From: a virus
IMG/VR virus record: IMGVR_UViG_3300025141_016780
Coordinates: 1 to 24,824 of that record
Length of the DNA: 24,824 nt
Reading direction: 5' to 3' (one strand)
This document shows positions 8,095-24,824 of this stretch, in pieces; position 1 is the stretch's first letter; every line of letters starts with the position of its first letter. Below the pieces are notes generated by a model that did no database searches, was not told the DNA's origin, and saw only the letters and a program-made list of their open reading frames with translations. The position numbers and the translations under genes were made by a program.

Positions 8095-9387
8095 TTAAAT
8101 TAGTCTTGATGCTTCAGTTGCTATTTTAGATCTCTCACCTTTTAGAAGTGTAACATGACCAGAAAGTGTGCTATTTTTAAATTTTTCAACAACCACCGTC
8201 AGACCATTTGATAAAGAGTCAATATAGGGTGTGTCAATCTGTTCAATGTCTCCGAGTAAGACTATTTTTGAATTTTCTCCAACTCTTGTAATTATTGTTT
8301 TTAATTCATGAATAGTTGAGTTTTGAGATTCATCAACTATAATAAACGTATTATTAAAAGTTCTTCCTCGTATAAAAGATAAGGGAGCAACCTCGATCAG
8401 CCCCTTGTCTCTCATAACATTATAATATGTAATATCCTTAAAAGCGACTCTAAAATTATCTGAAATTGGTGATAGCCATGGATCCATTTTATCATTCATG
8501 TCACCAGGTAGAAATCCTATATCTTTTCCGACAGGCTGGATACTTCTAGTAATTATTATTCTCTCGTGATGATTAGACTTAAGTGATGATATTGCTGCCA
8601 TCAATGTCAAATATGTTTTTCCCGATCCTGCTATTCCAGTAAGTGTGACTAGCGGAATATTCATATCTGTCAGAAGATCAAGTGCGAACTTCTGCTCTTT
8701 GTTTCTCGGTGAGGTCTTTATTAAATCATTTAGATCAGACTTGAGATGAACTATTTTTTCTCCGTCAAATCTACCCATCATAGATGACCCACAGTCAGAT
8801 TTTCCAATTATAAATTGATTTACTGAAAGACTTGATGATTCTTCACTAGTAAGAATTAGCTCTTTGTTTGAAAAGAATTTATCAATATTTTCTTTTGATA
8901 CTGTTATCAGCTTTTGGCCATTGTAAATTTGTGACTCAGAGTGGACTATCTTATCTTTATTGTAATCCTCAGAATTTATTCCCAATGCATCACACTTTAC
9001 TCTAAAGTTTATATCTTTTGTAATTACTGTGACTTGTCTCTCAAGCTCATTTGAAACACCGACTGCAAGACCAATTATTCTATTATCAGCATGACTAGGG
9101 CTCAATCCTTCAGGTACAAATGTATTGTGATTGACTTCGACCTTTATAGTCTGGCCATTATCTATTTCAATTCCTTCGTGAATATTCCCTTTCATCCTGA
9201 GATCATCGAGGTATCTATTGACGTACCTTGCTGCCTCTCCTACGACACCGTGCTTCTCCTTAAATCTGTCAACTTCATCCAGTACAATCAAGGGTATTAC
9301 GACATCCGATTCTGGAAATGAGTGAATTGAATCCTTATCGTAGAGCAAGACAGAAGTGTCTAAAATGAATACTTTTCTTTGTGACAT
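8095..9387 (-). CDS. phoH: PhoH-like protein with N-terminal PIN domain
   Basis: This 430-residue protein has the PhoH2 architecture. The N-terminal PIN nuclease domain (about 1-150) has VFILDTSVLLYD at 6-17, PLIVLDEVDRFK at 32-43, DNRIIGLA at 101-108 and VITKDINFRVKC at 121-132, giving the acidic residues of the active site. The C-terminal PhoH NTPase domain (about 225-430) has Walker A GIAGSGKT at 251-258, SIQPVGKDIGFLPGD at 282-296, and Walker B FIIVDESQN at 348-356 followed by LLGDIEQID. PIN-PhoH proteins are reported as RNA helicase/RNase-type enzymes; phoH is a frequent phage auxiliary gene. ATG follows an AAGGAAAAAA ribosome site. The gene is divergent from the sigma-like gene at 9442. 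Confidence 0.92.
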   Translation of the reverse strand: MSQRKVFILDTSVLLYDKDSIHSFPESDVVIPLIVLDEVDRFKEKHGVVGEAARYVNRYLDDLRMKGNIHEGIEIDNGQTIKVEVNHNTFVPEGLSPSHADNRIIGLAVGVSNELERQVTVITKDINFRVKCDALGINSEDYNKDKIVHSESQIYNGQKLITVSKENIDKFFSNKELILTSEESSSLSVNQFIIGKSDCGSSMMGRFDGEKIVHLKSDLNDLIKTSPRNKEQKFALDLLTDMNIPLVTLTGIAGSGKTYLTLMAAISSLKSNHHERIIITRSIQPVGKDIGFLPGDMNDKMDPWLSPISDNFRVAFKDITYYNVMRDKGLIEVAPLSFIRGRTFNNTFIIVDESQNSTIHELKTIITRVGENSKIVLLGDIEQIDTPYIDSLSNGLTVVVEKFKNSTLSGHVTLLKGERSKIATEASRLI

Positions 9388-9691: not shown

Positions 9692-9901
9692 CTATTTGTG
9701 AATTATATTTTTAAAATTTCTTCTTGATGCTATTGACATTTCAATCTCTTCGGTTGGAATATCTAGCGCTTCTTTTATTTCAAGCAAAGATTTTTCAATC
9801 TCATCTGTGATTAAATCTTCTTCCTGAACATATACAACTACGGGTTCTGGATTTCGCAATAGGGAAATATTTTTTATTTTTTCATAAATTTTCATCTTCA
9901 T
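9692..9901 (-). CDS. Small protein following the ZorA-like gene, function unknown
   Basis: This 69-residue protein is acidic in the middle and basic at both ends, with no membrane segment. VVVYVQEEDLITDEIEKSL may form a strand plus helix, followed by a helical KEALDIPTEEIEMSI. It overlaps the end of the ZorA-like gene by 20 bp, so the two are probably co-translated. A second ATG at 9895 is equally usable. The overlap suggests a partner or regulator of the motor pair. I do not recognise the family. Confidence 0.6.
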   Translation of the reverse strand: MKMKIYEKIKNISLLRNPEPVVVYVQEEDLITDEIEKSLLEIKEALDIPTEEIEMSIASRRNFKNIIHK

Positions 9902-10658
9902 TTCTCTCTTTGTTTTCTGGAATGTCTAGTTTTACTTTTTTTCTGAATGATGGCAATGCTGTTTGAACCCAGCCTATGCTCTCTGCAATTTGCTCTGTTA
10001 CGGGTTTTAGCTCAGCTAGAACTTCATTAGTTTTTGTCAAATGTTCAGAAGAAGCCTTGGTTACAATTGCATTCTGATCCATAGCCTCTGTAACGGAAAC
10101 TATTTCATCAACATATTTTTCCTGCCATGTTCTAAGCATTTCGATTGAATCTTTAAACTTAGAAATTGTCATCTGAGTCTCTGTATTGATTCCCATCTCC
10201 AGGCCCTCTACAAGCTCCTCGATAGCTTTTCCTAAAGCCTGGATATTAGAATTTGCAAGATTAACTGTAAAATCTTTCATGCTTAAATTTAAATTCTCAA
10301 GAAGGTTCTCAATATTTTTAAGAGATTTTTCATTTGATATTTCTTCATCATCTTTTACAAAACTTAAATTTATAAAAAGTGACGTAGACAATCCAACAAT
10401 TGAAGATCCAAATGCAATTTTCAACCCTTCAAGTAATTGAGGTATTGATCCTTCTGTATCTGATACGTCAAACCCTATCAGACCCTGCCAAATTCCAAAA
10501 AATGTCAGGAGAACACCGGTGGATGTTGCACCATATGCTAGCTTTCTAGGATCTAGCTGTATTTTTTCATATTTTTCTGATAAGAAGTAGGATAAAATAC
10601 AAAGAATTCCAAATATTCCTGGCAGAAAGGAAAGTATATTTACATAGCTAAAATTCAT
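9882..10658 (-). CDS. MotA/TolQ/ExbB-type proton channel protein, ZorA-like
   Basis: This 258-residue membrane protein has three hydrophobic segments at about 6-28, 45-64 and 77-100, then a long helical, probably coiled-coil tail to about 240. The channel signature is ATSTGVLLTFFGIWQGLIGF at 44-63 followed by LLEGLKIAFGSSIVGLSTSL at 75-94, as in MotA/TolQ/ExbB proteins and particularly ZorA of Zorya. The start codon overlaps the stop of the ZorB-like gene by 1 bp (TAATG). Such proteins form a pentameric ring around a MotB-type dimer and use ion flow to drive rotation. The tail of about 150 residues is much shorter than the long tails described for defence ZorA proteins. No ZorC or ZorD gene is adjacent. 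Confidence 0.8.
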   Translation of the reverse strand: MNFSYVNILSFLPGIFGILCILSYFLSEKYEKIQLDPRKLAYGATSTGVLLTFFGIWQGLIGFDVSDTEGSIPQLLEGLKIAFGSSIVGLSTSLFINLSFVKDDEEISNEKSLKNIENLLENLNLSMKDFTVNLANSNIQALGKAIEELVEGLEMGINTETQMTISKFKDSIEMLRTWQEKYVDEIVSVTEAMDQNAIVTKASSEHLTKTNEVLAELKPVTEQIAESIGWVQTALPSFRKKVKLDIPENKERNEDENL

Positions 10659-11368
10659 TATAATGTCTCCGATATTTTCTTTAAGCTTTCTTCTGGATTA
10701 ATCATAATTGTAAATTCAACTCGTCTGCTTGCGTATGGATCTTCCCTGCCTTCGCTATCATATTTCAATCTTGAAAATGAAAATCCGTTTGCAGTTATTG
10801 TTAAAATTGACCAGTCTATAAGCTGCTGTGGTGTTTGTGTAAAACAATACTCGAGAACGTTTCTAGATCTATTTTGAGAAAGTTCCATATTATTAAAGTA
10901 AGACTCATCCCTACCTACACTTTCACTCCACTCACTAGACGTATGTCCTTCAATTTTTATCTCAGATATTACACCCTGGTTATTACTAAGAATATCTAGG
11001 TATCTTGGCCAGAAATCAGAAAGTATTTTCTCAAACAAAGGTGAGACTTTTGAATCACCCGCAGCGAACAATACTTCAGGTGATTCAAATCTAAAAGTAA
11101 GCGTGTCATCATCTATTGATGCATCCCACTTTTTTAAATCTTTATCAAACTCTTCATGAAGGGCATTTGCTATTTCCGCCCTTCTGTCAATAAAGTCTGC
11201 CACTATATTTTCAATATCATCGTGAGAAGCTACTGCTTCTTCAACAGCTTTTTCAGATTCTTTTTTTATCACTGTGGCATAACTTACAGTGATAAATAGA
11301 AAAACCATCATAAGCCCAGTCATCATATCTGATATTGATAACCACGGATCTTTTAAACGTCTGGCCAT
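10658..11368 (-). CDS. MotB/OmpA-type motor protein, ZorB-like
   Basis: This is a 236-residue protein with one N-terminal membrane helix and a C-terminal OmpA-like peptidoglycan-binding domain. The start, DPWLSISDMMTGLMMVFLF at 7-25, is very close to the characteristic ZorB N-terminus; Asp14 at the head of the helix is the expected proton-carrying residue. A helical linker covers about 40-85. The OmpA domain runs from about 90 to 228, with IKIEGHTSSEW, LSQNRSRNVLEYC and ASRRVEFTI as the peptidoglycan-contact blocks. It is the first gene of the motor pair. Within the family the dimer pairs with five channel subunits. Compared with MotB, the WxSxSDxMTGLMMVFL pattern favours ZorB. No good ribosome site precedes the ATG. 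Confidence 0.82.
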   Translation of the reverse strand: MARRLKDPWLSISDMMTGLMMVFLFITVSYATVIKKESEKAVEEAVASHDDIENIVADFIDRRAEIANALHEEFDKDLKKWDASIDDDTLTFRFESPEVLFAAGDSKVSPLFEKILSDFWPRYLDILSNNQGVISEIKIEGHTSSEWSESVGRDESYFNNMELSQNRSRNVLEYCFTQTPQQLIDWSILTITANGFSFSRLKYDSEGREDPYASRRVEFTIMINPEESLKKISETL

Positions 11369-11479
11369 GTTATATAATTATCATACTTTTAAATAAAAGC
11401 CAGGGCGAAGAATTCCAGTCTAAAATATTAGCATCTAGAAACTTCAATATTTACTTGCATAGCATACAGCCGAAAGCAA
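11369..11479 (-). promoter_or_regulatory. Leader of the ZorB-like gene
   Basis: This is 111 bp between the DUF6356-like gene and the ZorB-like gene. On the minus strand the end reads GTATGATAATTATATAACATG, with several TATAAT-like sequences directly before the start codon. A clear ribosome site is absent. A 10-codon frame starting in an ATGA overlap with the DUF6356-like stop (11478-11446) is the only other coding-like sign. Promoter position is not certain. Confidence 0.25.
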
Positions 11480-11668
11480 TCATAAATTTCTAATCTTTTC
11501 AGCTATGTCAGTTGCAGTTGTCTCAAACAAGAAAGGAAGCATGGCATGAATCATGCATGCAATACACGCACTTCCCATCAATACGGATATCTTTGCTGCT
11601 CTTATCATATGACTAGCATATGTCATATTATTTTCTTTAAGGTGTCTCGTAAGCATTTGTTTATACAT
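11480..11668 (-). CDS. DUF6356-like small membrane protein
   Basis: This 62-residue protein matches, by eye, the short DUF6356 pattern: a soluble N-terminus with Met-Thr-Tyr-Ala-Ser-His, then one hydrophobic helix ISVLMGSACIACMIHAMLPF at 27-46, and LFETTATDIAEKI. The His-Ala-x-Leu-Pro-Phe-Leu-Phe block is the family hallmark. DUF6356 proteins are known to me from proteobacterial chromosomes, and their function is unknown. ATG at 11668 has AAAGG about 10 nt upstream. It lies just upstream of the ZorB-like gene and downstream of the tRNA. As a membrane protein beside a membrane motor it may act at the inner membrane, but this is guesswork. Confidence 0.65.
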   Translation of the reverse strand: MYKQMLTRHLKENNMTYASHMIRAAKISVLMGSACIACMIHAMLPFLFETTATDIAEKIRNL

Positions 11669-11694
11669 ATTATGTAGACCTTTAAGTGTAATTA

Positions 11695-11767
11695 TGGAGA
11701 TGGCAGGAATCGAACCTGCGACCTGCTACGTGCAAGGCAGCTGCTCTCACGTCTGAGCTACACCCCC
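11695..11767 (-). tRNA. tRNA-Ala (anticodon TGC)
   Basis: A complete cloverleaf is present on the minus strand: acceptor GGGGGTG/CATCTCC, D stem GCTC/GAGC, anticodon stem GCTGC/GTAGC with loop CTTGCAC (anticodon TGC), variable loop AGGTC, and T stem GCAGG/CCTGC with loop TTCGATT. The third acceptor pair is G-U, the main alanine identity element. The discriminator is A and no CCA is encoded. The conserved hairpin element at 11776-11808 ends 8 nt before its 5' end. It is the only complete tRNA in the window and may help tmRNA function or Ala codon use. Confidence 0.95.
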
Positions 11768-11775
11768 TTTAAAGA

Positions 11776-11808
11776 TGAGGCATCTGTAATCCCATGCCTC
11801 CCTGCGGA
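11776..11808 (-). repeat. Post-stop hairpin element, copy A
   Basis: This 33-nt element lies 8 nt after the stop of the 71-residue gene and is identical over 33 nt to copy C (12350-12382). On the minus strand CCGCAGGGAGGCAT leads into a loop and returns as ATGCCTC, giving a 7-bp stem GAGGCAT/ATGCCTC. There is no U-tract, so it is not a standard intrinsic terminator. It sits between a protein gene and tRNA-Ala and may stabilise the mRNA 3' end or direct tRNA processing. Confidence 0.75.
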
Positions 11809-11816
11809 TTTCTTAT

Positions 11817-12032
11817 TTACTTCTTCTGAACGAATGCGTACAGCTTTTCAGCTTCAGCAATGACATCTTCAGTTGTATAAGGCGGCACTGGCTTTCGCTG
11901 ATACTTGCTGTCATTCTCTGCAGCGAAGTGTTCATTATTTTCAAGACGATTAGCCCTGTCAATTACAATTCCTGTAGCCATTCCCAGCAAATCCGTGCGG
12001 AGCTGGTACCCGCTTTTATTATTATCTCCCAT
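11817..12032 (-). CDS. Small conserved-type phage protein, function unknown
   Basis: This is a 71-residue soluble protein with an AAGGGAGAATAAA ribosome leader before ATG. The N-terminal SGYQLRTDLLGMATGIVIDR and the later block TTEDVIAEAEKLYAFVQ look like a family of small T4-like marine phage proteins with a Tyr-x-x-Arg-x-x-Leu-Leu head and an Ile-x-x-Ala-x-x-Leu-x-x-Phe-Val tail. I recall the pattern but no assigned function. It is followed by hairpin copy A and preceded by copy B, so it belongs to the same post-transcriptional group as the cold-shock and lipoprotein genes. Confidence 0.7.
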   Translation of the reverse strand: MGDNNKSGYQLRTDLLGMATGIVIDRANRLENNEHFAAENDSKYQRKPVPPYTTEDVIAEAEKLYAFVQKK

Positions 12033-12064
12033 TTTATTCTCCCTTAGTGTGTGTATGTAATGGG

Positions 12065-13981: not shown

Positions 13982-14008
13982 TGTTACAAGTAGATGTTCT
14001 TAAAAGGG

Positions 14009-14373
14009 TGGACCCGGCGGGAGTCGAACCCGCGTCCGCAATAGCTTCAAAGTCAAGTCATTCACAGGTTTATCTAATTTACTATCACAAATTAGAAAAG
14101 GTAGTCGGATATCCCTACGCTTACCGACCTGTTGCGCCCCACCTGTTTCCAGGGAACCATTCTGATTTTTTTATTTCGCAGGAATCTACCTGTTATCTTA
14201 AGTTGGGTATCAAGGTCTTAAGCAACCCCGCCGATTAAGCCGCTAGGCGGACAGAATCGAAGTGATAATTGTTATTGGCAATTAAAGTTTTGAAACCGTG
14301 TTTAAGGTCCACTGTTTCCTGTGACCACCTGCACTCTTCTTCTCTACTACCCCGTCGAAGCCGTTTCGGGCCC
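14009..14373 (-). ncRNA. ssrA: Transfer-messenger RNA (one-piece)
   Basis: The minus strand begins GGGCCCGAAACGGCTTCGACGGGG and ends with T-arm GCGGG-TTCGACT-CCCGC followed by CGGGTCC and discriminator A. The two ends pair as a 7-bp acceptor stem with G-U at the third pair, as required for alanine charging. The CCA is not encoded exactly (CCC follows). The message part has resume codon GCC and a TAA stop within a helix-5-like stem around CGCCTAGCGGC. At about 365 nt the length is normal for a one-piece tmRNA. It starts 1 nt after the stop of the Hc1-like gene, so it is probably cut from a polycistronic transcript. tmRNA rescues stalled ribosomes and tags nascent proteins for proteolysis. No smpB gene is visible in the window. 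Confidence 0.96.
14235..14279 (-). other. tmRNA proteolysis tag ANNNYHFDSVRLAA
   Basis: Fourteen sense codons run from resume codon GCC to TAA and give ANNNYHFDSVRLAA. The Leu-Ala-Ala end is the ClpXP/ClpAP-type degron of bacterial tags; the start Ala-Asn-Asn-Asn-Tyr is close to the usual Ala-Asn-Asp-Glu/Asn-Tyr. The inner part (His-Phe-Asp-Ser-Val-Arg) is unlike the tags I remember. Confidence 0.88.
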
Positions 14374-14570: not shown

Positions 14571-14804
14571 CTAGTCTATTGTAAGTATTTTCTTCTTTTC
14601 TTTTATGACTTCATCTTGCTTCTGAACAAGCTTAGATATTCCTAGCATTTTATCTCTACTCTCTAATTCAAGTGATAAAAGATATATTATTTGAAGCTTC
14701 TGATCTTCAGTTACTCCAAAGTTTATAATTTCCTTAACTATCTCACGACACTGTATCATTTTTTCAGTGTGAAGATCGCTTTCTGATTTACCGTAAGATT
14801 TCAT
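14571..14804 (-). CDS. Small helical protein, function unknown
   Basis: This 77-residue, charged, mostly helical protein has no recognised motif. Two helical blocks are visible: MIQCREIVKEIINFGVTEDQ and LQIIYLLSLELESRDKML, with a Lys-rich end. The start overlaps the upstream gene stop by 4 bp (ATGA). The first block, with Glu-Ile-Val-x-Glu-Ile-x-x-Phe-Gly-Val, is typical of small phage proteins but I cannot name a family. Confidence 0.65.
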   Translation of the reverse strand: MKSYGKSESDLHTEKMIQCREIVKEIINFGVTEDQKLQIIYLLSLELESRDKMLGISKLVQKQDEVIKEKKKILTID

Positions 14805-15283
14805 TTTATCTCATATTCTCCCAAAATCTCATCTTTTCTAATATGAGAGTCAATCTTAATTCTATTTTCAGACTTTATAGTCAAGATTTTTATTTGAACA
14901 GAATCGCTTACCTGATCTCTTGCTATTATTATAGATTCACCCCACATGTCATTATCAAATATAAATTTTATATTTTCCCATATTGATATATCACATTTGT
15001 GCGTACTTAAAATGGAGACTATATCTACCGGTAGCGTGGGAATTATATCATCAATCTTTACTATTGACTTTACATCTTCCACACTGTGAACAATTTCTGA
15101 CTTACAAAAATCTGTTATATTGTGAATTACACCACAATTGTTACATTCGCAAAATTTAGGAACTAAGTCATCTTCATCATCAATAATTGAAAAAGTAACA
15201 AACTTATGAAATATGGGATCTTTACTTTTTCTATACTGAGGAAGAACACAGTGACACTGAATTAGATGTCTTATTCCTTTCAT
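14801..15283 (-). CDS. Zinc-binding-type phage protein, function unknown
   Basis: This is a 160-residue protein. The N-terminal RHLIQCHCVLPQYRKSKDP at 5-23, HKFVTFSIIDDEDD at 26-39 and PKFCECNNCGVIHNITDF at 42-59 place Cys10, Cys12, Cys45, Cys47 and Cys50 as a likely zinc site. I have seen this arrangement in proteins of marine T4-like phages, where it is of unknown function. The C-terminal half is a beta-rich domain ending in LTIKSENRIKID. AAGG lies just before the ATG. It is translationally coupled to the 77-residue gene after it. Confidence 0.7.
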   Translation of the reverse strand: MKGIRHLIQCHCVLPQYRKSKDPIFHKFVTFSIIDDEDDLVPKFCECNNCGVIHNITDFCKSEIVHSVEDVKSIVKIDDIIPTLPVDIVSILSTHKCDISIWENIKFIFDNDMWGESIIIARDQVSDSVQIKILTIKSENRIKIDSHIRKDEILGEYEIK

Positions 15284-15595: not shown

Positions 15596-16966
15596 CTATG
15601 GTCTACTACAGGGTAAAATACAACCCGTGGATGATATAGAGGTAGCTATTGACATTGACATTTTAATAGATGTAACTAGAGAATTTGTTGAAATATTTTT
15701 TATGCCCCTAGCCTTTAAAATTGACATAAGATGATTTTCAATCTTTGAGTCTTTATTGATTTTTTTAGAAAGATTTACTCTATTCACAACCCCCGTGCTA
15801 ATGATAGACGGAATTGATCTAAAAAATTTATCAATATTCTCAATAATAAGTGGGTCTCTCATTAAGTCACTCTGCCCAATTCTAATTTCTGTCCTACCGG
15901 AAGATAGACACTTAATTCTTTCATTAAAAAGACGCTGACCTGCTGGCTCAAGAATTTTATCTCTTTTTTCCTTTATCTCTCTAATCTGAATTAAAGCTCT
16001 CTTTTCACAATTATTATTTTGTATTGAAATACCCTCTGAGTGGGCATAGATGCTATTAACTGTGGAAATTTTTTCAATTACAGATTTTGAAATTAAATCA
16101 CCCTTATACGATGAGGTAATGTCACATCCGCAAACTGCACTAAGATCACTAAAAATATTAACAGTGGTTTCTGTTATTGGAATTTCTATGGGCATCACAT
16201 CAATGGTTTTTTTATTATTATTAATGTAGATTGTATTTTTAACATCAGGAGAAAGACCTCGAACAAATAAAATATATGGTTCCCTAGATTCAGATGCATA
16301 AGTTAGTAGATGGTGTATTTCAGAAACCTCAAGAATTACTCCATCAATTATTACACAGTTAACATCTCTTCTCTTCCACCCTGTTCCTAGAAAATTTTTA
16401 TCAACATGTAGCGGAAAATTATATCCATCACGTACAACTATAGCAGAATTTACTTTATTTGTTTTTTCAACAACTATCTTTCTTGATGATCCTGATAGTG
16501 ATATTGAATATTTAACAATCTCTCTTGTTGTCTTATCATCAAATATCTGACGTATGATCTGATCAAAAGATTTTTTATCTGCTATCTTTCCGACACTACA
16601 TATTTTTTTAATAAGTTCATTTGCCTCCAGCCAGAGGCTATCAGAAATAGTCTTATGATGCTTTTCTGCAATAATCTCAGGAAGCATATCTTTTAATAGG
16701 AATAAAGATAGTAAAAGTGTTATTTCTCCAGAGCCCGGAGAAGATAATTCAGATCTAATGGCCTCTTTAAGGACTATAGGCTTAAATATCTTTTCATGAA
16801 AGTGATCATCTTTAAGCAGCAGATATGATTGAATTAAATCAGATGTTCTAGTTTTATTAGAAACTAAAATATTGTGATCAAGATTTTGAATTGACTCTAT
16901 TGATCTTTTTACATGATCTAGAAATACCTCGCTAGACCTTCTTGATGAAAAAATAATATCTGTCAT
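15596..16966 (-). CDS. Divergent GroEL-type chaperonin-like protein
   Basis: This 457-residue protein (456 from ATG at 16966; a GTG lies one codon upstream) seems to align with GroEL along its length. Numbering from GTG, SSPGSGEITLLLSLFLL at 76-92 sits where GroEL has GDGTTTATVLAQAI. VIIDGVILEVSEIHHLL then ESREPYILFVRGLSPDV at 206-243 matches the apical segment with ISNIREMLPVLE and GKPLLIIAEDVEG. RLFNERIKCLSSGRTEIRIG at 346-365 matches LQERVAKLAGGVAVIKVG. IENIDKFFRSIP-IISTGVV at 376-395 matches RVEDALHATRAAVEEGVV, so Asp380 lines up with GroEL Asp398. Distances between blocks are close to GroEL's. The ATP-site Asp of GDGTT appears to be Ser, so ATP use may be altered or lost. It starts 27 bp after prkA. 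I infer a phage chaperonin; unrelated structural mimicry is possible. Confidence 0.55.
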   Translation of the reverse strand: MTDIIFSSRRSSEVFLDHVKRSIESIQNLDHNILVSNKTRTSDLIQSYLLLKDDHFHEKIFKPIVLKEAIRSELSSPGSGEITLLLSLFLLKDMLPEIIAEKHHKTISDSLWLEANELIKKICSVGKIADKKSFDQIIRQIFDDKTTREIVKYSISLSGSSRKIVVEKTNKVNSAIVVRDGYNFPLHVDKNFLGTGWKRRDVNCVIIDGVILEVSEIHHLLTYASESREPYILFVRGLSPDVKNTIYINNNKKTIDVMPIEIPITETTVNIFSDLSAVCGCDITSSYKGDLISKSVIEKISTVNSIYAHSEGISIQNNNCEKRALIQIREIKEKRDKILEPAGQRLFNERIKCLSSGRTEIRIGQSDLMRDPLIIENIDKFFRSIPSIISTGVVNRVNLSKKINKDSKIENHLMSILKARGIKNISTNSLVTSIKMSMSIATSISSTGCILPCSRP

Positions 16967-16993
16967 CACTAAGCACTTATAAAATGATTCAAC

Positions 16994-18925
16994 TTAAGAA
17001 TCTCTCCAGAGATTATTAGAAGCATAGATTAAAGCCTCCTCTGCACTACTTTCATTGTATCCGTATTCATCTATGAGAGTTTCAATCATATTGTTATACT
17101 TCTTTCTCTGATTATCATCTCTTGACTTGCTCTTTGTTATGATTCTTGCAATATCTTTAACAGATGATATTAGATAAGATTCAATGGCCTCTTTTAAAGG
17201 TCCATATGATGAGTAATCAACAATTTCACCATGTCTAAGTTTTGCAAACATATACGCTGTAACATCACTTCTAAATCCGTCTCTAGATGATCCAGTTATA
17301 CCAATTTGTTCCTCAATTGATCTCATAAATTTTTCGTCTGGGTCTCTCTCTTCTTTTGTCACCCTGTCTTTAACCTTTGCCCTAGTCGAAAAACATTCAG
17401 CGTTATCTAGGTAAGAATCAAATAAGGATTGTGCCTGTTCTTCATAAGCTGTAATAAATGCCTTTGCAATCTCATTTTCCAGCATCTTTAGATACTCATC
17501 TCTTATTACTTTCTTTAATAGCTCAAGATAGTGTGACCTATCGTCATCAGATATGACTTGATCATCTACCTGTGATATTAGGGAGTCTATTACAGATACC
17601 GGTGTAATCATATCCCTGTCTGAATCTGTTAGGGCATTATCTAAAGATTTCATAATAAATCTAGTTGATATTCCCCTCATACCTTCATTTCGACATTCAT
17701 CTCTAAGATCTTTGATATCTATTTTTTTTACCCTTCCTTTCTCAATAACGTCTTCTCCATTATAAATCTTCATTTTTGTGACTATGTCACACTTCTGTGA
17801 AGGCTGAAGTCTTGACATTACAGAAAACATAGATGCAATTCTAAGAGTGTGCGGAGCAATGTGTATGCTTTTAAATTCAGATCTATTTATCATCTTTTCA
17901 TAAATCTTAATTTCCTGATCAAGCTCTAAAACATAGGGAACGTCTATTTTAACAATTCTATCTAAAATAGCTTCATTTGTATGCTCACTTTTAAACTTAT
18001 TCCACTCAGACTCATTGCAGTGTGCAAGAATAACACCGTCAAAGTGAATCATAGCATTTTTCCCAGGTGACGGAATACGCTTTTCCTGTGTGGCAGTTAT
18101 GACTGTATGCAAGAATTCTATTTCATTCTTAAACATCTCAATAAGCTCAACAATTCCTCTGTTTCCAACATTGAATGCACCATTAAGAGAGAGAACCCTT
18201 GGATCATCTTCTGGATATAGATCTAGTTTAGAAATATCTTCAGAACCAATCAGAACAGAAACGTCTTGGCTGTTGGCATCCATTGGGGGAACTGATGCGA
18301 TTCCTCTTCTCGCTCTTTGTGAAAATGTTGCCTCAATAACGGGAAAATTCTCATATGCTCCATCTAGGTCATTTAAAAGTCTATGTCTTGCTACTGGGCT
18401 AATATCTCCCTCAATTGTTATATTTAGGATTTTTTCAAATTGAGCCCTTAGTGATCTTGGTACAAGCTGCATAGGCTCACCCCTCTGTGGGTCTCCCTCT
18501 AGGTGATAGAATCTCTTACCTTCTAATGCACTTTTAATATGTTCTGTAAGGGCTGATTTTCCAGCACCAACTGGTCCCATTAAGAGAAGCACCTGTCTAC
18601 TTTCCTCTCCTTTAGACGCTGCAGAGTTTAAAAATCTCATGACTTTTGAAATAACATTTTCCATTCCAAAAAATTCATCTTTAAAGTAGCTATATACTCT
18701 AACACTATTACCATCAAATATTTTTCTACATCTTGGATCTGACTCTTCCATCCTACCCACACCCTCATCCTCAATTACAGAACAAAGTCTTCTGTGTGCT
18801 GTCTGTAAGATAGAAGGATCTTTTTTAATGATTTCTAGGTACTCTAGAAAGCTACCAGAAAATTTCTTCTTTTTTGCTTTCTTTCTCTGTTCTGATATGA
18901 TTGTAAGAAAATCTTTTTTGGACAT
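16994..18925 (-). CDS. prkA: PrkA/YeaG-family serine protein kinase (AAA+)
   Basis: This is a 643-residue protein, essentially the full length of E. coli YeaG. The N-terminal AAA+ domain has Walker A GPVGAGKS at 117-124, then YHLEGDPQRGEPMQLVP at 140-156 and HFDGVILAHCNESEW-like sensor blocks. The C-terminal part contains DEKFMRSIEEQIGI followed by SSRDGFRSDVTAYMFAKLR, the conserved end of PrkA. Known members are stress or starvation-associated kinases; some work suggests AAA+ protease-like activity. ATG follows AGGAAG. It lies downstream of yeaH and spoVR homologues and upstream of the chaperonin-like gene. There is no sign of frameshift or truncation, so it is likely functional. Confidence 0.93.
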   Translation of the reverse strand: MSKKDFLTIISEQRKKAKKKKFSGSFLEYLEIIKKDPSILQTAHRRLCSVIEDEGVGRMEESDPRCRKIFDGNSVRVYSYFKDEFFGMENVISKVMRFLNSAASKGEESRQVLLLMGPVGAGKSALTEHIKSALEGKRFYHLEGDPQRGEPMQLVPRSLRAQFEKILNITIEGDISPVARHRLLNDLDGAYENFPVIEATFSQRARRGIASVPPMDANSQDVSVLIGSEDISKLDLYPEDDPRVLSLNGAFNVGNRGIVELIEMFKNEIEFLHTVITATQEKRIPSPGKNAMIHFDGVILAHCNESEWNKFKSEHTNEAILDRIVKIDVPYVLELDQEIKIYEKMINRSEFKSIHIAPHTLRIASMFSVMSRLQPSQKCDIVTKMKIYNGEDVIEKGRVKKIDIKDLRDECRNEGMRGISTRFIMKSLDNALTDSDRDMITPVSVIDSLISQVDDQVISDDDRSHYLELLKKVIRDEYLKMLENEIAKAFITAYEEQAQSLFDSYLDNAECFSTRAKVKDRVTKEERDPDEKFMRSIEEQIGITGSSRDGFRSDVTAYMFAKLRHGEIVDYSSYGPLKEAIESYLISSVKDIARIITKSKSRDDNQRKKYNNMIETLIDEYGYNESSAEEALIYASNNLWRDS

Positions 18926-18977
18926 GTCTTCCTATTCCCTATAAAAAATTGTATCACGATTAATTTGATAATAAATA

Positions 18978-20285
18978 TCAAATCTCCCAAACTTCATCTT
19001 CAATAATTGTGAAGAATCTTACGCCGCCCTTCCAGAGCCTTAAGATGTGATTGACGACAGCTTCTGCATAGTCTAGCTCAAGATCTCTGCCATCATGCTC
19101 ATGCTCCAGAACAAGACAGCCATCAATGACATCTTTGACTAAAATTCTTGGAATTGAGTTTACACCAATATTTTTTAGTAAATCATTTCTAACAACTTTC
19201 CAGCCATCTTCGTCTGAAACCTCATCAATTGTTATTCCCTTCTTCTTTTGTGAATAGCTAAATAAATTTAGCTCTTCACAATCCTCTCTCTCAAGAAGAC
19301 ACCTTAGTGCAGATTCATCATCGTGAACTGCTCTATTGAAAAAACACTCCTTAATTCCGTCTTTTTCCTCAATTTTTTTAAAGAGATAAAATCCAATATG
19401 ATATGGATTTATGCTTCCGATATGAGGTCTAATGACCTGATTATGTGATCTTATAAACGGCATGTGAAGAGAACTATCCAGCCCTAGATCTTGCATAATC
19501 TTATAGTGCCAAAAGCTTGCCCAGCCTTCATTCATAATCTTTGTCTTAACCTGCGGAATAAAGTAATGAGACTCTTCTCTTACTATGTCAATTAAGTCTC
19601 TTTCCCATTCTTCTAAATGGCTTCCATGCTCAACTATAAATCCTAAAAGATCATCATCAAGATGTATTGGAATCTTATCTAATCGAGTTGAATCTACAGC
19701 TATATTATCAACAGGATTGTTAATTTTATCAATTAGATCTTCTCTAATTTGTCTATGGGGGATTCTTTCTCTCCCGTTTCTTTCCGTTTGAAATCTAACT
19801 GAGTGTGCTGCGTCTAGGACCTCTTCTACCTTTTCAACACCAATATTTGGATCCTCAATGTATTTTCTTACGCGATCTCGAGCTGTTTTAAATTTCATAA
19901 TTGCTGAACTGGGTCGAGTATTTGAAAAAATTCTATTATTTTTAAAAAAATCTGAGTGTCCTACACAGTGAGCCATTATTAATATTTGAAGATAGAGAGG
20001 ATTTTCTCTCATAAGATACGCAATCGATGGATTAGAATTTATGATTAGCTCATATGGAAGTCCCTCCATCCCAAGTGTATACATCTGGTGAGTTCTTTCA
20101 AAAGATTTTCCGTAAGACCAGTGACGGTAGTGAGATGGCATTCCGTGATACGCCATGTGTCCCATCATTTCAAAATAATCAACAACCTCATATATTATTG
20201 GAAACCAGTCAAGTCCATAAGATTCAGCAATCTTACAGATCTTATCGTCCCACACTTCTAGATCAGAGAATGACCAGTCAGACAT
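18978..20285 (-). CDS. spoVR: SpoVR/YcgB-family protein
   Basis: This is a 435-residue SpoVR-type protein, slightly shorter than B. subtilis SpoVR and E. coli YcgB. Recognisable blocks are AESYGLDWFPIIYEVVDYFE, YHGMPSHYRHWSYGKSFER, LPYELIINSNPSIAYLMREN, LQILIMAHCVGHSDFFKNN, IMNEGWASFWHYKIM and NPYHIGFYLFKKIEE, in the family's usual order. The biochemical activity is unknown; in Bacillus it affects spore cortex formation, and in other bacteria it is linked to PrkA and YeaH. The start overlaps the yeaH-like gene by 8 bp. The His-rich conserved positions are intact. Confidence 0.93.
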   Translation of the reverse strand: MSDWSFSDLEVWDDKICKIAESYGLDWFPIIYEVVDYFEMMGHMAYHGMPSHYRHWSYGKSFERTHQMYTLGMEGLPYELIINSNPSIAYLMRENPLYLQILIMAHCVGHSDFFKNNRIFSNTRPSSAIMKFKTARDRVRKYIEDPNIGVEKVEEVLDAAHSVRFQTERNGRERIPHRQIREDLIDKINNPVDNIAVDSTRLDKIPIHLDDDLLGFIVEHGSHLEEWERDLIDIVREESHYFIPQVKTKIMNEGWASFWHYKIMQDLGLDSSLHMPFIRSHNQVIRPHIGSINPYHIGFYLFKKIEEKDGIKECFFNRAVHDDESALRCLLEREDCEELNLFSYSQKKKGITIDEVSDEDGWKVVRNDLLKNIGVNSIPRILVKDVIDGCLVLEHEHDGRDLELDYAEAVVNHILRLWKGGVRFFTIIEDEVWEI

Positions 20286-21453
20286 TTAAACCACCAAATA
20301 GCTTTGTAAACGAAGGCCAGATATCGTCTGATGAGTTGATCTTTATAATCTTAAATGATCCACCAACTATTGGAAGATAAAGAGTGTACAGTGTTGTTGG
20401 ATCATTTGCCCAGGCAAGTTTTTCACCCTCAGGAGTGACTTCCGTGTAGCAGTATAGCTGGGAAATATCTTTTAACCTTATAGAGAGCTGAAGTGCTTTT
20501 TCATTATCGTCAATCCAGTTATCTCCATCAGAGCAATGAAATGTATAAATATTCCAGGAGCTTGGGTGGTATCTCTTATCTATGATTTCCAGACATCTAT
20601 CTAGTGCAGATGATGCAAAAGTTCCTCCGCTACTCACCTTTCCAAAAAAATCATCCTCATTAACCTCTTTTGCATTAATGTCGTGAGAGATGAATACTAG
20701 ATCAACATTTGTGTATTTGTATCTTAAAAAATGATATAGAAGAAAGAAAAACGATCTAGCCATAAATTTCTTATCTTTGCTCATTGATCCAGACGTGTCC
20801 ATCATAAAGAATATAACTGCATTATTATTTTCCTTTGGAAACTCCTTAATATGTCTGTATTTAAGGTCATCTTTATGAAAAGGAAATCTCTGATCACCCT
20901 CTGGATCAAATGATCCATTTCTCTCAGATGACTTCTTTCTTTTAATTTTATTTTTAAGTGTTTCTTTTTTTGATAATCTTGGTCTAATTCCTTTTTTTCT
21001 ATACCCAGATCTTTTAAATTTTTCTCCAACAATATTTTTAAATTTCTTCTTTTCAAGCTCAGGAAGATTAAGACTATCAAAAAGATAGTGAGATAATTCT
21101 TCTAAGGTAATTTCAACTTCATAAAGCTCTTCACCTGGCTTGTCTCCTGCCCTTTCTCCAGCTGGCTTTCCCTTGTTCTTTCCTTGAGAAATTTTCTGAC
21201 CCTTTCTAACATTTTTTCCGGGTGCAGATCCAACCTTTTTATTTTTATTATTATTTCCATAGACAAATCTATATTCTTTTATTCCTCTAACTGGAATCTT
21301 TATCTTTTTCTTTCCATTCTTTCCTATGATTGATTCATCAGAGACGATATTGTAAATACCCTCTCTCATTGCTTTTTCTATTTTCTTTTTGTGACGGCTT
21401 CTATCAGCTGCTGATCTATCTGCTGAAGTTTTATGTTCTTTAAATGTAGACAT
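20278..21453 (-). CDS. yeaH: YeaH/DUF444-family VWA protein
   Basis: This is a 391-residue DUF444 protein (E. coli YeaH is 427). The first 100 residues are very basic and start KEHKTSADRSAADRSRHKKK, the typical family head. The VWA domain has MIDAS motif MMDTSGSMSKD at 217-227, KVSSGGTFASSALD at 272-285 with the MIDAS Thr, and FHCSDGDNW at 305-313 with its Asp. VWA domains often partner AAA+ ATPases, which fits the PrkA homologue two genes downstream. It is the first gene of the three-gene module; upstream is a 72-bp gap with no strong ribosome site. Confidence 0.93.
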   Translation of the reverse strand: MSTFKEHKTSADRSAADRSRHKKKIEKAMREGIYNIVSDESIIGKNGKKKIKIPVRGIKEYRFVYGNNNKNKKVGSAPGKNVRKGQKISQGKNKGKPAGERAGDKPGEELYEVEITLEELSHYLFDSLNLPELEKKKFKNIVGEKFKRSGYRKKGIRPRLSKKETLKNKIKRKKSSERNGSFDPEGDQRFPFHKDDLKYRHIKEFPKENNNAVIFFMMDTSGSMSKDKKFMARSFFFLLYHFLRYKYTNVDLVFISHDINAKEVNEDDFFGKVSSGGTFASSALDRCLEIIDKRYHPSSWNIYTFHCSDGDNWIDDNEKALQLSIRLKDISQLYCYTEVTPEGEKLAWANDPTTLYTLYLPIVGGSFKIIKINSSDDIWPSFTKLFGGLNV

Positions 21454-21525: not shown

Positions 21526-22023
21526 TCAGTCGCTATTTAAGATACTTTTTACCCAGTCAGCTGCAGGTCTAAGATACCCAATACATCTTTTTTTAAAATC
21601 GTCTATCGATAGCCAGTCTGCAGAGGCGTGCTCTATTTTTCCTGTATTCGGATTGGGCCTTATGGTGGGTTCTGCTTTTGTTGATGCAACGTATAGTGTT
21701 ACAGTATTACAGGGTATTGATATCTTTCCCCACTCAAAGCTAAGCTGATCTGGGCTGATTCCTGACTCCTCGTGTGTCTCTCTAATCGCAGCTTCGAGTG
21801 ATGACTCACCTGGATCAATTAGACCCTTTGTTAAGTCATACATTCCATTGTGCTTCGGCTTTGTAGACCTTAATCCGAGAATTTTCCAATCATCATCAAA
21901 TTTTTTTACAACAACAATTCCTGAAGCTCTGGGAGAATTTCCTTCGAGCTCTATTGTCTCCCGTATAATTCTTCTTAATTGATATAGCTGTCTTTTTCTA
22001 TCTCTCACTTCAATAAGCCCCAC
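21526..22023 (-). CDS. Nudix hydrolase with LRRIIRE tag
   Basis: This 165-residue protein has a full Nudix box, GLIDPGESSLEAAIRETHEE and then SGI, at 67-89 (G-x5-E-x7-R-E-U-x-E-E-x-G-U). It also has the strand YDLTKG just before it and YVASTKAEPTI after it, as in MutT/ADP-sugar type enzymes. The N-terminus QLYQLRRIIRETIELEG at 12-28 contains the same Leu-Arg-Arg-x-Ile-Lys/Arg-Glu tag as other proteins in the window. The start is GTG at 22023; no better in-frame ATG exists and the ribosome site is weak. Probable role: hydrolysis of nucleoside diphosphate derivatives; substrate unknown. Confidence 0.9.
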   Translation of the reverse strand: MGLIEVRDRKRQLYQLRRIIRETIELEGNSPRASGIVVVKKFDDDWKILGLRSTKPKHNGMYDLTKGLIDPGESSLEAAIRETHEESGISPDQLSFEWGKISIPCNTVTLYVASTKAEPTIRPNPNTGKIEHASADWLSIDDFKKRCIGYLRPAADWVKSILNSD

Positions 22024-22132: not shown

Positions 22133-22930
22133 TTGCGAGATAGTTTAAAAAAATTTATTAAATTTATTTTCTCGATGGTTAAAAAGCTATCTATACTAAT
22201 ACTGATATTAGTTTGCATAATACCCCTGATTATAATTCCTTTAGTTCCAAGAGTGATTGATTATGTAGAGGAAATTCGGTATCCAGAGGATAATTTTGTC
22301 ATGATATACCTGATATCGATGTCTGATATTCAGCTATCTGATACAGGAATTTCTAATGGGTATCCGGACGTCTATGAGGGTCAGGCATCTGGGATGGCTA
22401 TTGCTGATTCCGACGGAAAGACATATGTGCTGACAGCAGATCACTTTTGTGATAACTTTGACGAGATGTATATAGCTAGAAACTTTTTAAATCTTGGTTC
22501 AATATTACAAATTTATGATTTTTACGGTGACTACTGGGATGCAAAAATAGTCATGCAAGATTCAAAGCTTGATCTATGCTTAATTGAAACTAACATGCCG
22601 ATATCTAGAGAAATTAATGTAGCTGAAGAAATGCCTGAACTTGGAGATGAAATTTATTCAATAGCAGCACCGCTTGGATTCGGAGGAAATGGTGCTGCTC
22701 TTCACTTTAACGGACAGTTTTCTGGCTGCGATGGCTCTCATTGCTACTTTACAATTCCTGCAGCCGGAGGAAGCTCTGGAAGCCTAATATTAAATGGAAA
22801 GGGCGAGGTTGTCGGAATGACTCAGATGGCTGCTCACAGGATGCAAAATGTAGCATTTGGTGTAGGGGCTGCTCAAATTAGAGATTTTCTTACCAGGGCT
22901 GAAGAGGAACTGGATGCTGATCTTCTCTAA
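22133..22930 (+). CDS. Membrane-anchored trypsin-like serine protease
   Basis: This 265-residue protein has a basic N-terminus and a strong hydrophobic segment at about 18-40 (KLSILILILVCIIPLIIIPL), so it is anchored to the inner membrane with the domain probably outside. The chymotrypsin/DegP triad is visible: LTADHFC with His104, SKLDLCLIE with Asp147, and AGGSSGSLIL with Ser215 in G-S-S-G-S. Later, VGMTQM and FGVGAAQIRDFL complete the C-terminal barrel. The start is TTG with GAGGG 5-6 nt upstream; an alternative ATG at 22175 has no ribosome site and would remove most of the N-tail. It may degrade host or superinfecting-phage proteins, or act in lysis. It overlaps the convergent 105-residue gene by 41 bp. 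Confidence 0.88.
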   Translation: MRDSLKKFIKFIFSMVKKLSILILILVCIIPLIIIPLVPRVIDYVEEIRYPEDNFVMIYLISMSDIQLSDTGISNGYPDVYEGQASGMAIADSDGKTYVLTADHFCDNFDEMYIARNFLNLGSILQIYDFYGDYWDAKIVMQDSKLDLCLIETNMPISREINVAEEMPELGDEIYSIAAPLGFGGNGAALHFNGQFSGCDGSHCYFTIPAAGGSSGSLILNGKGEVVGMTQMAAHRMQNVAFGVGAAQIRDFLTRAEEELDADLL

Positions 22931-23406: not shown

Positions 23407-23832
23407 ATGAGAAAATTATTAGTATCTGACCAGATAAACCTAAGCCCTGACCAGGTAAGACTGTTAGGTGAGTTTGTAGTATTCTGTGAGAAATCTCTTC
23501 CAATAAAAAATGGATATACTGTCAAGGTTGTTGCGAATAGAGATCAGCACAATATTGGAACGACCGCAGCCTACATGGTCGGTGGAAATGAGTGCAGGGT
23601 ATACGGAAAGAATAGGGCGCTTGTTGACATCTTGAGATCAATAGCACATGAGATGGTTCACATGATGCAGGACGAGCAGGGGATGATCACAGGACCTGTG
23701 CAGGATGCTGGAGGATTTCACGAGGACCAAGCCAACGCGAAGGCCGGTGAGCTAATCAAGCTATTTGCCAAGAGCTCTCCAGAGCGGCGTGGCATATATG
23801 AGAGAAAGCGGATCAGGGGTAGGATTCTCTAG
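23407..23832 (+). CDS. Small zinc metallopeptidase (HExxH)
   Basis: This 141-residue protein has ILRSIAHEMVHMMQDEQG at 75-92 with HExxH at 81-85, and GGFHEDQANAKAGELIKLF at 102-120, where Glu106 is the probable third zinc ligand (gluzincin pattern). The first half, VANRDQHNIGTTAAYMVGGN, forms the expected beta-sheet edge. Small stand-alone metallopeptidases like this are frequent in marine phages and have no firm role; they may process virion proteins or attack host proteins. It is on the plus strand with a weak AAGAA site and overlaps the lysozyme gene's end by 4 bp. Confidence 0.85.
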   Translation: MRKLLVSDQINLSPDQVRLLGEFVVFCEKSLPIKNGYTVKVVANRDQHNIGTTAAYMVGGNECRVYGKNRALVDILRSIAHEMVHMMQDEQGMITGPVQDAGGFHEDQANAKAGELIKLFAKSSPERRGIYERKRIRGRIL

Positions 23833-24824
23833 GATATCTCTGCTGCTAGAGGATCGTTTGGAAACCACTTCTTTATGGCCTTCTTTGTGTTTGCCTTTGC
23901 CCGTGTGACAGCAGATCCTACCTTTCCAAGTCCTGCATTAGCCTGAGCAGCTGCCTCTATAGCAGAATTCATATCAGTGTATCCCTTTCGAGCATCACCG
24001 CCGGTCTGCTTGTTTGCCTTGCTACCTAGACGGTTTACAAGAAACTTTACAGCGACCTCTGCAGCGACCTTTGGATCATTCAAAAGATCGGGATTGCTCA
24101 GTATATCCACACCTGTTATCTGTGCGTACTTCTTATATGATCCTCTAAAAGTGAGCTGATTAAACCCACGACCTCGATACTTCCACCCGTCATCAGTTCC
24201 CTCTCTATTTCCATACCTTCCACCGTAGACGAGGCTAAAGAATCCCTTAGGATCTTTTTTTAGCTCTTCGACCTCTGAGTCTCCCTTACCCTTGAGCTTT
24301 GATCCAAATATGGTTCTAATTCTGCTGAGACCTGTCTTGTCATACGGTTTCTCACCCTGAGGTATGAACCCTGACTCCTTTCCTATGACACCGAGAATTG
24401 CAAGCCTAAGTCGTGGATCTGTAATCTTAGCCTTGTCAAGCTCTGTCTTTATTAGACCTATATTTGCCCCTGGATCACCGCCAGCAACAGTCTCAGCTGT
24501 CGACTCTATGGGCTCTTTTTCTTTATCCGTAGAGGACTCTTCTTCACCGCTCATGTCTCTCTTCTTAATCTCTGTGAGAAAAGCGTCACGAATTGCTGAT
24601 CTTATAAGAGATTCAGATAGCTTCGGTACGATCACCTTTGGAGCGTTTGGAGCGCCTGCCTTATCCTTTTTAGCAGCTCCCTTCTCTGTTCCTGCATACT
24701 TCTCTCTTCCTACTGCTGCTTTCTCTCCGGCCTTCATAATCCTGCCCGCCTTTCTTCTCGTCACTTTGTCCTTCGATGCCAGCGATCTATGAAGCAAGAT
24801 AAGGGCTCCCTTTGACTGCTCATA
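23829..24824 (-). CDS. GH19 chitinase-like lysozyme, 5' truncated by window
   Basis: The open frame continues to the window edge, so the true start may lie outside; the TTG at 24797 is only a possible start. Numbering from that TTG, residues 111-300 form a GH19 domain: LAILGVIGKESGF at 133-144 with the catalytic Glu141, GGRYGNREGTDDGWKYRGRG at 192-211 followed by FNQLTFRGSYKKYA, then VDILSNPDLLNDPKVAAEVA. GH19 enzymes cut peptidoglycan or chitin; in phages they are endolysins or virion lysozymes. The N-terminal 110 residues are Lys/Ala-rich and contain LSESLIRSAIRDAFLTEI at 60-77, a variant of the shared Leu-Arg-x-x-Ile tag. No signal peptide is visible. A virion-associated lysozyme is as likely as an endolysin. 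Confidence 0.85.
   Translation of the reverse strand, partial: YEQSKGALILLHRSLASKDKVTRRKAGRIMKAGEKAAVGREKYAGTEKGAAKKDKAGAPNAPKVIVPKLSESLIRSAIRDAFLTEIKKRDMSGEEESSTDKEKEPIESTAETVAGGDPGANIGLIKTELDKAKITDPRLRLAILGVIGKESGFIPQGEKPYDKTGLSRIRTIFGSKLKGKGDSEVEELKKDPKGFFSLVYGGRYGNREGTDDGWKYRGRGFNQLTFRGSYKKYAQITGVDILSNPDLLNDPKVAAEVAVKFLVNRLGSKANKQTGGDARKGYTDMNSAIEAAAQANAGLGKVGSAVTRAKANTKKAIKKWFPNDPLAAEIS

What the first reader, a model, noticed from the sequence alone, without database searches (positions are those of the whole stretch)
16994..21453. Complete YeaH-SpoVR-PrkA operon on a phage genome
Three adjacent full-length genes encode homologues of YeaH (DUF444/VWA), SpoVR/YcgB and PrkA/YeaG. In bacteria these families co-occur and are induced in stationary phase, nitrogen starvation or sporulation, with the molecular mechanism still unclear. 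The catalytic and MIDAS residues are intact. Carried by a phage, the module could put the host into, or take it out of, a starvation-like state. The gene order (yeaH, spoVR, prkA), the 8-bp overlap and the chaperonin-like gene immediately downstream are unusual.
Basis: partly seen in the sequence, partly recalled or inferred. Interest (0 to 1): 0.75.

Follow-up and report, generated by a model that had tools for sequence, protein, structure and literature searches.

The report
Bacterial starvation gene trio in phages
A large uncultured T4-related virus of bacteria carries a complete, strongly conserved set of three genes that bacteria switch on when they starve, and dozens of its relatives do too, so the virus probably needs this protein-handling machine of unknown exact job during infection.

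Summary
yeaH (20278-21453), spoVR (18978-20285) and prkA (16994-18925), all on the minus strand, are full-length members of PF04285, PF04293 and PF08298+PF06798 on a virus record with phage flanks. It is not a one-off. At least 89 distinct viral loci carry the trio in the same order, under strong purifying selection, in large 'Far-T4' phages. The PrkA tree shows one capture in this group, sister to Clostridia-type PrkA. At least two other phage lineages, including Thermus phages, acquired the trio separately, so 'phage with trio' is not new. Near-complete relatives lack it, so it is a widespread cassette, not core. The downstream 'chaperonin-like' gene really has the GroEL fold but lacks the ATPase P-loop. 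It occurs without the trio in relatives, so it is a neighbour rather than an operon partner by descent. New here: SpoVR models as a gluzincin-like metallopeptidase fold with an invariant H-x3-H...E site and no catalytic Glu. Best reading: a phage copy of an AAA+/VWA protein-remodelling machine (PrkA/YeaH) with SpoVR as client or effector, kept to run infection in starved hosts. The direction of the effect on the host is not shown.

The parts
20278..21453 (-). yeaH: DUF444/VWA protein, 391 aa, complete MIDAS; first gene of the trio
   Evidence: PF04285 E 3e-108; MIDAS residues invariant in 221 homologues
18978..20285 (-). spoVR (YcgB family), 435 aa; overlaps yeaH by 8 bp; predicted gluzincin-like fold with H106-x3-H110...E253 and no catalytic Glu
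   Evidence: PF04293 E 1e-117; model pLDDT 90.3; VIA-align Z 8-11.5 to metallopeptidases; residues
16994..18925 (-). prkA (YeaG family), 643 aa: AAA+ ATPase with C-terminal PrkA domain; Walker A intact
   Evidence: PF08298 4.3e-138 and PF06798 3.3e-80; solved relatives 9xip, 9xiq, 9xir E 7e-91; alignment
15596..16969 (-). orf4: chaperonin (GroEL) fold, 457 aa, P-loop GDGTT absent; 24 bp after prkA; conserved Far-T4 gene, not restricted to trio carriers
   Evidence: phmmer to GroEL 4e-6; AF2 pLDDT 90.6; Foldseek 2.3e-25, TM 0.79 to 4v4o_G; P-loop check; present without trio
14801..15283 (-). orf6: conserved protein of unknown function that follows orf4 in the clade
   Evidence: profile found in 88 loci, synteny
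14007..14373 (-). tmRNA (tag ANNNYHFDSVRLAA), in the same place in 10 of 24 related loci scanned
   Evidence: ARAGORN; Rfam RF00023 E 5e-42
8095..9387 (-). PIN-PhoH protein, conserved downstream marker of the locus
   Evidence: phrog_2765 1.4e-100; PIN_4 and PhoH domains; synteny
21526..22023 (-). NUDIX hydrolase gene upstream of yeaH, present in part of the clade
   Evidence: PF00293 2.8e-14; 40 loci
22133..22930 (+). divergent trypsin-like protease gene, upstream of the trio in much of the clade
   Evidence: PF13365 3.2e-9; 77 loci

Best explanation
The locus is a phage-carried copy of the bacterial PrkA-YeaH-SpoVR stress module, captured once by an ancestor within the Far-T4 phages and kept since as one cassette (shown). 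The proteins most likely work together as an ATP-driven protein-remodelling machine: PrkA is the AAA+ motor, YeaH the VWA adaptor that grips clients through its MIDAS metal, and SpoVR, a metallopeptidase-fold protein that has kept a metal site but lost the catalytic base, the client or effector that PrkA-YeaH loads or activates (inferred from domain anatomy and by analogy with MoxR-type AAA+/VWA pairs). In infection it would supply an activity that bacteria make only in stationary phase or starvation, so that a slow, large phage can complete protein folding, assembly and translation upkeep in nutrient-limited cells, alongside tmRNA and PhoH at the same locus (inferred).
For: Full-length genes with conserved motifs. 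All 89 window-type loci keep the three genes together on one strand in one order with near-zero spacing, as expected for co-translated partners. Rough dN/dS is 0.03-0.10 for the trio against 0.13-0.32 for orf4 in pairs with usable dS. Window-type PrkA forms one fully supported clade. PrkA from Bacillus anthracis forms oligomers with ATP and shows no detectable kinase and negligible protease activity, which fits a remodelling ATPase (PMC13001217). E. coli yeaG and yeaH mutants share a nitrogen-starvation phenotype (PMC4664914). [quoted passage not shown] SpoVR fold and metal-site pattern.
Against: No expression, interaction or activity data for any phage copy. The SpoVR fold match rests on VIA-align Z 8-11.5; Foldseek alone gave nothing below E 0.001. 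SpoVR crosslinks RNA in vivo in B. subtilis (PMC12456014), which a pure protein-client model does not predict. Near-complete relatives G046 and G047 do without the trio, so it is not essential to the phage type. The host is unknown.
Confidence: 0.45

Rival explanations
1. Host-state control: the phage trio sets the host's stress programme (for example RpoS or toxin-antitoxin balance), holding cells in or pulling them out of a starvation-like state.
For: Bacterial yeaG loss changes metabolic heterogeneity and rpoS output in nitrogen-starved E. coli (PMC4664914). spoVR was the most abundant sporulation-type viral gene in an oxygen-minimum-zone virome, whose authors proposed host persistence (PMC8940887).
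Against: No direct target is known in bacteria. The capture is from Clostridia-type PrkA, and whether such a machine can act on an unrelated host's regulators is not known.
Confidence: 0.25
2. Virion morphogenesis: the trio is an assembly chaperone for phage structural proteins, together with the chaperonin-like orf4.
For: In Thermus phage Lalka8 the trio lies between a minor head protein gene and terL, and in YS40 next to terL. In the window it lies beside an ATPase-dead chaperonin gene.
Against: In the window's group the trio lies about 70-105 kb from terL and the capsid genes (positions). orf4 occurs without the trio and the trio without orf4. Relatives with the same capsid type lack the trio.
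Confidence: 0.18
3. Counter-defence or defence: the AAA+/VWA pair works against host immunity or superinfecting phages.
For: Other AAA+/VWA pairs occur in conflict systems (own knowledge); a weak AAA match to DolB, E 9.8e-7; ZorA/ZorB-like genes lie in the same window.
Against: No PADLOC match for YeaH or SpoVR; the DolB match covers only the AAA region. The bacterial trio has a stress phenotype.
Confidence: 0.06

Closest known systems
Bacterial yeaG-yeaH-ycgB / prkA-yeaH-spoVR stress operon (E. coli, R. etli, Clostridia)
   Same: Same three protein families, adjacent, same strand; conserved MIDAS and Walker A
   Different: Order is usually prkA-yeaH-spoVR in bacteria but yeaH-spoVR-prkA here; carried by a phage; own well supported PrkA clade
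Trio of Thermus phages YS40, TMA, MN1, Lalka8
   Same: Phage-borne, same three families, same gene order yeaH-spoVR-prkA
   Different: PrkA only 28-32% identical, separate branch of the tree, located beside terL; no orf4
Trio of other T4-like phages (loci L044-L065) and of huge phages LR745206, LR756511, LR756502
   Same: All three families; T4-type gp23 capsid gene in those of the records tested
   Different: Bacterial order prkA-yeaH-spoVR where adjacent; separate PrkA branches; 30-41% identity
Ralstonia jumbo phage RsoM2USA SpoVR (ORF28) and PrkA (ORF30)
   Same: Phage with SpoVR and PrkA close together (PMC8504454)
   Different: Both nearly identical in E-value terms to proteobacterial proteins, different phage group; the paper treats them as unrelated replication and signalling genes
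GroEL / Cpn60 (for orf4)
   Same: Fold over the whole chain
   Different: P-loop GDGTT missing, about 70-90 residues shorter, fast evolving

Membership tests
PrkA/YeaG family | AAA_PrkA domain plus PrkA C-terminal domain above curated cut-offs | tested here: met
   460.7 and 269.9 bits against cut-offs of 25
PrkA/YeaG family | Walker A motif intact | tested here: met
   GPVGAGKS at 117-124
PrkA/YeaG family | Protein kinase or protease activity | not testable with these tools
   Disputed even for bacterial PrkA (PMC13001217)
YeaH/DUF444 family | DUF444 match and MIDAS (DxSxS, T, D) | tested here: met
   363 bits against 27; D219, S221, S223, T278, D309 invariant
SpoVR/YcgB family | PF04293 over the whole protein plus SpoVR_C | tested here: met
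   393.8 bits against 27; 31.5 against 27.6
Bacterial-type three-gene operon | Three genes adjacent on one strand | tested here: met
   Overlap 8 bp, gap 52 bp; same in 89 relatives
Bacterial-type three-gene operon | Induction in starvation or stationary phase | not testable with these tools
   No transcript data for the phage
Active gluzincin metallopeptidase (for SpoVR) | Gluzincin-like fold | tested here: inconclusive
   Nine best VIA-align rows are metallopeptidase or putative hydrolase folds, Z 8.1-11.5; Foldseek not significant
Active gluzincin metallopeptidase (for SpoVR) | HExxH with catalytic Glu | tested here: not met
   H106-C/V/A-x-x-H110 in all 191 aligned sequences; His and E253 kept, Glu absent
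GroEL/Cpn60 active chaperonin (for orf4) | Chaperonin fold | tested here: met
   Foldseek E 2.3e-25
GroEL/Cpn60 active chaperonin (for orf4) | ATPase P-loop GDGTT | tested here: not met
   Window sequence PGSGEIT in its place; no window-type copy has the motif
Far-T4 phages | T4-type gp23 capsid and terminase closest to immuto, Mel-JY01, RM378 | tested here: inconclusive
   Shown for long trio-carrying relatives; the window fragment itself has neither gene

The most novel reading that the evidence does not exclude
SpoVR is a metallopeptidase-fold protein whose conserved metal site serves binding and not peptide cleavage, and PrkA-YeaH is its dedicated AAA+/VWA loader; Far-T4 phages took over this whole machine as their own proteostasis system, separate from any control of the host's stress response.
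Probability: 0.22. Interest if true: 0.72.

Novelty: new variant of a known kind. Interest (0 to 1): 0.5.

Why it matters
The PrkA-YeaH-SpoVR operon is widespread in bacteria and strongly starvation-induced, yet its biochemistry is unsettled. Several phage lineages have captured it independently and hold it under strong selection as an intact unit, so its activity can be moved between hosts and is worth carrying. The phage versions are compact, naturally co-selected sets for reconstituting the complex. The SpoVR metal-site prediction gives a direct mutational test. It also corrects the habit of calling viral spoVR a sporulation gene: these genes come with prkA and yeaH in phages of hosts not known to sporulate.

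Tried and rejected
Chromosomal fragment or prophage remnant: rejected. It is a virus record, the flanks are phage genes, and relatives on contigs up to 361 kb mostly carry a T4-type capsid gene. Chaperonin gene as a fourth partner of the trio: rejected as a rule, since it is kept where the trio is absent and missing where the trio is present. Trio as core gene of the phage group: rejected by G046 (309 kb) and G047 (340 kb), which lack PrkA and SpoVR matches, with the caveat that they may be incomplete. Prevalence from terminase-anchored contigs: led nowhere; only 1 of 24 has the trio, but most do not reach the 70-105 kb needed. Foldseek for SpoVR: no significant hit. No paper in the held library found linking SpoVR to a zincin fold, or describing the trio in Far-T4 phages; subscription papers are not covered. 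Enterobacter phage LAU1 YeaG/YeaH lie at the very end of the record and look like host DNA, so it was not counted as a phage carrier. Huge phage LR756511 PrkA sits on a very long branch, so its placement is unsure.

Full report
Observation. The window is a 24,824-base virus record. On the minus strand, yeaH (20278-21453, 391 aa), spoVR (18978-20285, 435 aa) and prkA (16994-18925, 643 aa) are complete ORFs with Pfam scores far above cut-off. yeaH and spoVR overlap by 8 bp (ATGTCTGA), and spoVR and prkA are 52 bp apart. The YeaH MIDAS set is complete and invariant across 221 homologues, and the PrkA Walker A is intact. Flanks are phage-like: endolysin (23829-24797), PhoH, methyltransferase and glycosyltransferases, a tRNA and a tmRNA.

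How common. Scans of the viral collection gave 78 PrkA loci and 242 SpoVR relatives, of which the best 80 were kept. After merging copies of the same contig, 118 distinct loci hold all three genes: 89 in the order yeaH-spoVR-prkA and 29 in the order prkA-yeaH-spoVR, all on one strand. In the 89, the yeaH-spoVR junction has a median of -8 bases. So the order and the overlap are group traits, not oddities of this window.

Which phages. Of 20 long trio-carrying records, 16 have a T4-type gp23 capsid gene and 17 a terminase match. For a 242-kb member of the window's group, the closest isolates for capsid and terminase are Flavobacterium phages immuto, Microcystis phage Mel-JY01 and Rhodothermus phage RM378. 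RM378 and its relatives are the 'Far-T4' phages (own knowledge of the group; the Far-T4 paper PMC4360716 does not mention SpoVR or PrkA). None of these isolates was among the trio carriers. The window fragment itself carries neither marker gene, so its placement rests on the clade its trio belongs to.

Origin. In the PrkA tree the window-type phages form one clade (support 100), sister to a Clostridia/Bacillota group (support 97 for the join), with nearest bacterial identity of 55-58%. A second T4-like phage group (loci L044-L064 and L075) is a separate clade, the Thermus phages a third, and YeaG-type phage genes (L066-L071, LR745206) lie apart again. That means at least three captures. A 73%-identical 'Methylococcaceae TMED69' gene (L168) nests inside the phage clade, beside yeaH, spoVR and orf4, and the same assembly holds a T4-type capsid gene: most likely a phage contig binned into a MAG.

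Cassette, not core. Anchoring on the PhoH gene instead of the trio, near-complete relatives G046 (309 kb) and G047 (340 kb) have the same capsid type and keep orf4, but have no PrkA or SpoVR match. G009 carries the trio far from orf4. The trio therefore moves, or is lost, as a unit.

Selection. Rough pairwise dN/dS (saturated dS, so only indicative) is 0.03-0.10 for the trio and 0.13-0.32 for orf4 in the usable pairs. The trio is used.

The chaperonin-like neighbour. orf4 (15596-16969) matches GroEL weakly by sequence (4e-6). Its AlphaFold2 model is confident (pLDDT 90.6) and matches GroEL over the whole chain (Foldseek 2.3e-25; TM 0.79 to 4v4o_G). The P-loop GDGTT is replaced in every window-type copy; nine full-length copies of about 540 aa near the trio in other members keep it. 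So orf4 is a degenerate chaperonin, probably not an ATPase. It is a resident Far-T4 gene next to which the trio sits in this lineage.

SpoVR. No solved relative is found by sequence. The model (pLDDT 90.3) has no significant Foldseek hit, but the nine best VIA-align rows (Z 8.1-11.5) are M1, M3, M32-type metallopeptidases, LTA4 hydrolase and putative hydrolases of that kind. The alignment independently shows H106-x3-H110 and E253 invariant in all 191 phage, bacterial and Thermus-phage sequences, while position 107, where gluzincins have the catalytic Glu, is always Val, Cys or Ala. Sequence pattern and fold agree. I infer a metal-binding pseudo-peptidase, or a different metal enzyme using the same 2-His-1-Glu site. 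The Z values are moderate, so this is a prediction. SpoVR crosslinks RNA in B. subtilis (PMC12456014), which must also be accommodated.

Mechanism. Bacterial data: yeaG and yeaH share a nitrogen-starvation phenotype in E. coli (PMC4664914); prkA is the most (p)ppGpp-induced gene in R. etli and is co-transcribed with VWA and SpoVR genes (PMC3188799); B. anthracis PrkA is an ATP-oligomerising AAA+ protein without detectable kinase and with negligible protease activity (PMC13001217). AAA+ plus VWA is the architecture of MoxR-type remodelling pairs (own knowledge). Committed reading: PrkA motor, YeaH adaptor, SpoVR client or effector, used by the phage for protein upkeep in starved cells. Shown: identity, co-conservation, selection, capture history. 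Inferred: complex formation, SpoVR as client, benefit in starved cells. Rivals are host-state control, virion assembly and counter-defence. Thermus phages keep the trio beside terL or head genes, which is the best hint for assembly; in the window's group it lies far from those genes.

Novelty. Phage copies of the trio are on record in Thermus and huge phages, SpoVR and PrkA are reported in jumbo phage RsoM2USA (PMC8504454), and spoVR as a viral gene in an oxygen-minimum zone (PMC8940887). New here are the Far-T4 cassette with its fixed order, the multiple captures, the dead chaperonin neighbour, and the SpoVR fold and metal-site prediction.

Noticed in passing
window 9882-10658 and 10658-11368 (-): Adjacent ZorA-like (PADLOC ZorA2 1.6e-23) and ZorB-like (ZorB2 7.3e-79) genes, as in Zorya defence, on a phage. 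The ZorA-like protein is short (258 aa), no ZorC/D/E gene was recognised, and only one phage record has a ZorB-like match.
   Followed up: partly
L014 3255-5816 (+): SpoVR of this relative is interrupted in frame by an intein with LAGLIDADG domain (Intein_splicing 3.6e-10, LAGLIDADG_3 3.3e-17). G053 also has a SpoVR split by about 1.2 kb in one open frame of 874 codons.
   Followed up: partly
L168 (NHDW01000006.1): A 306-kb contig filed as Methylococcaceae MAG TMED69 carries the phage-type yeaH-spoVR-prkA-orf4 and is probably a mis-binned phage.
   Followed up: partly
window 14007-14373 (-); L009, L081, L088, L097 and others: Phage tmRNA at the same place between orf6 and PhoH, with two tag types (ANNNYHF..RLAA and ANDNV..ALAA) in different members; could help to link hosts.
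   Followed up: no
L121, L122, L123, L135, L140, L147, L150, L152, L028: Full-length chaperonins (about 540 aa, GDGTT present) near the trio in a subgroup, in addition to the degenerate orf4 elsewhere in G009.
   Followed up: partly
window 22133-22930 (+): Divergent trypsin-like protease gene with an N-terminal hydrophobic stretch, kept upstream of the trio in 77 loci.
   Followed up: no
L146 about 11312-12041: A 0.7-kb insertion between spoVR and prkA in one relative; not identified.
   Followed up: no
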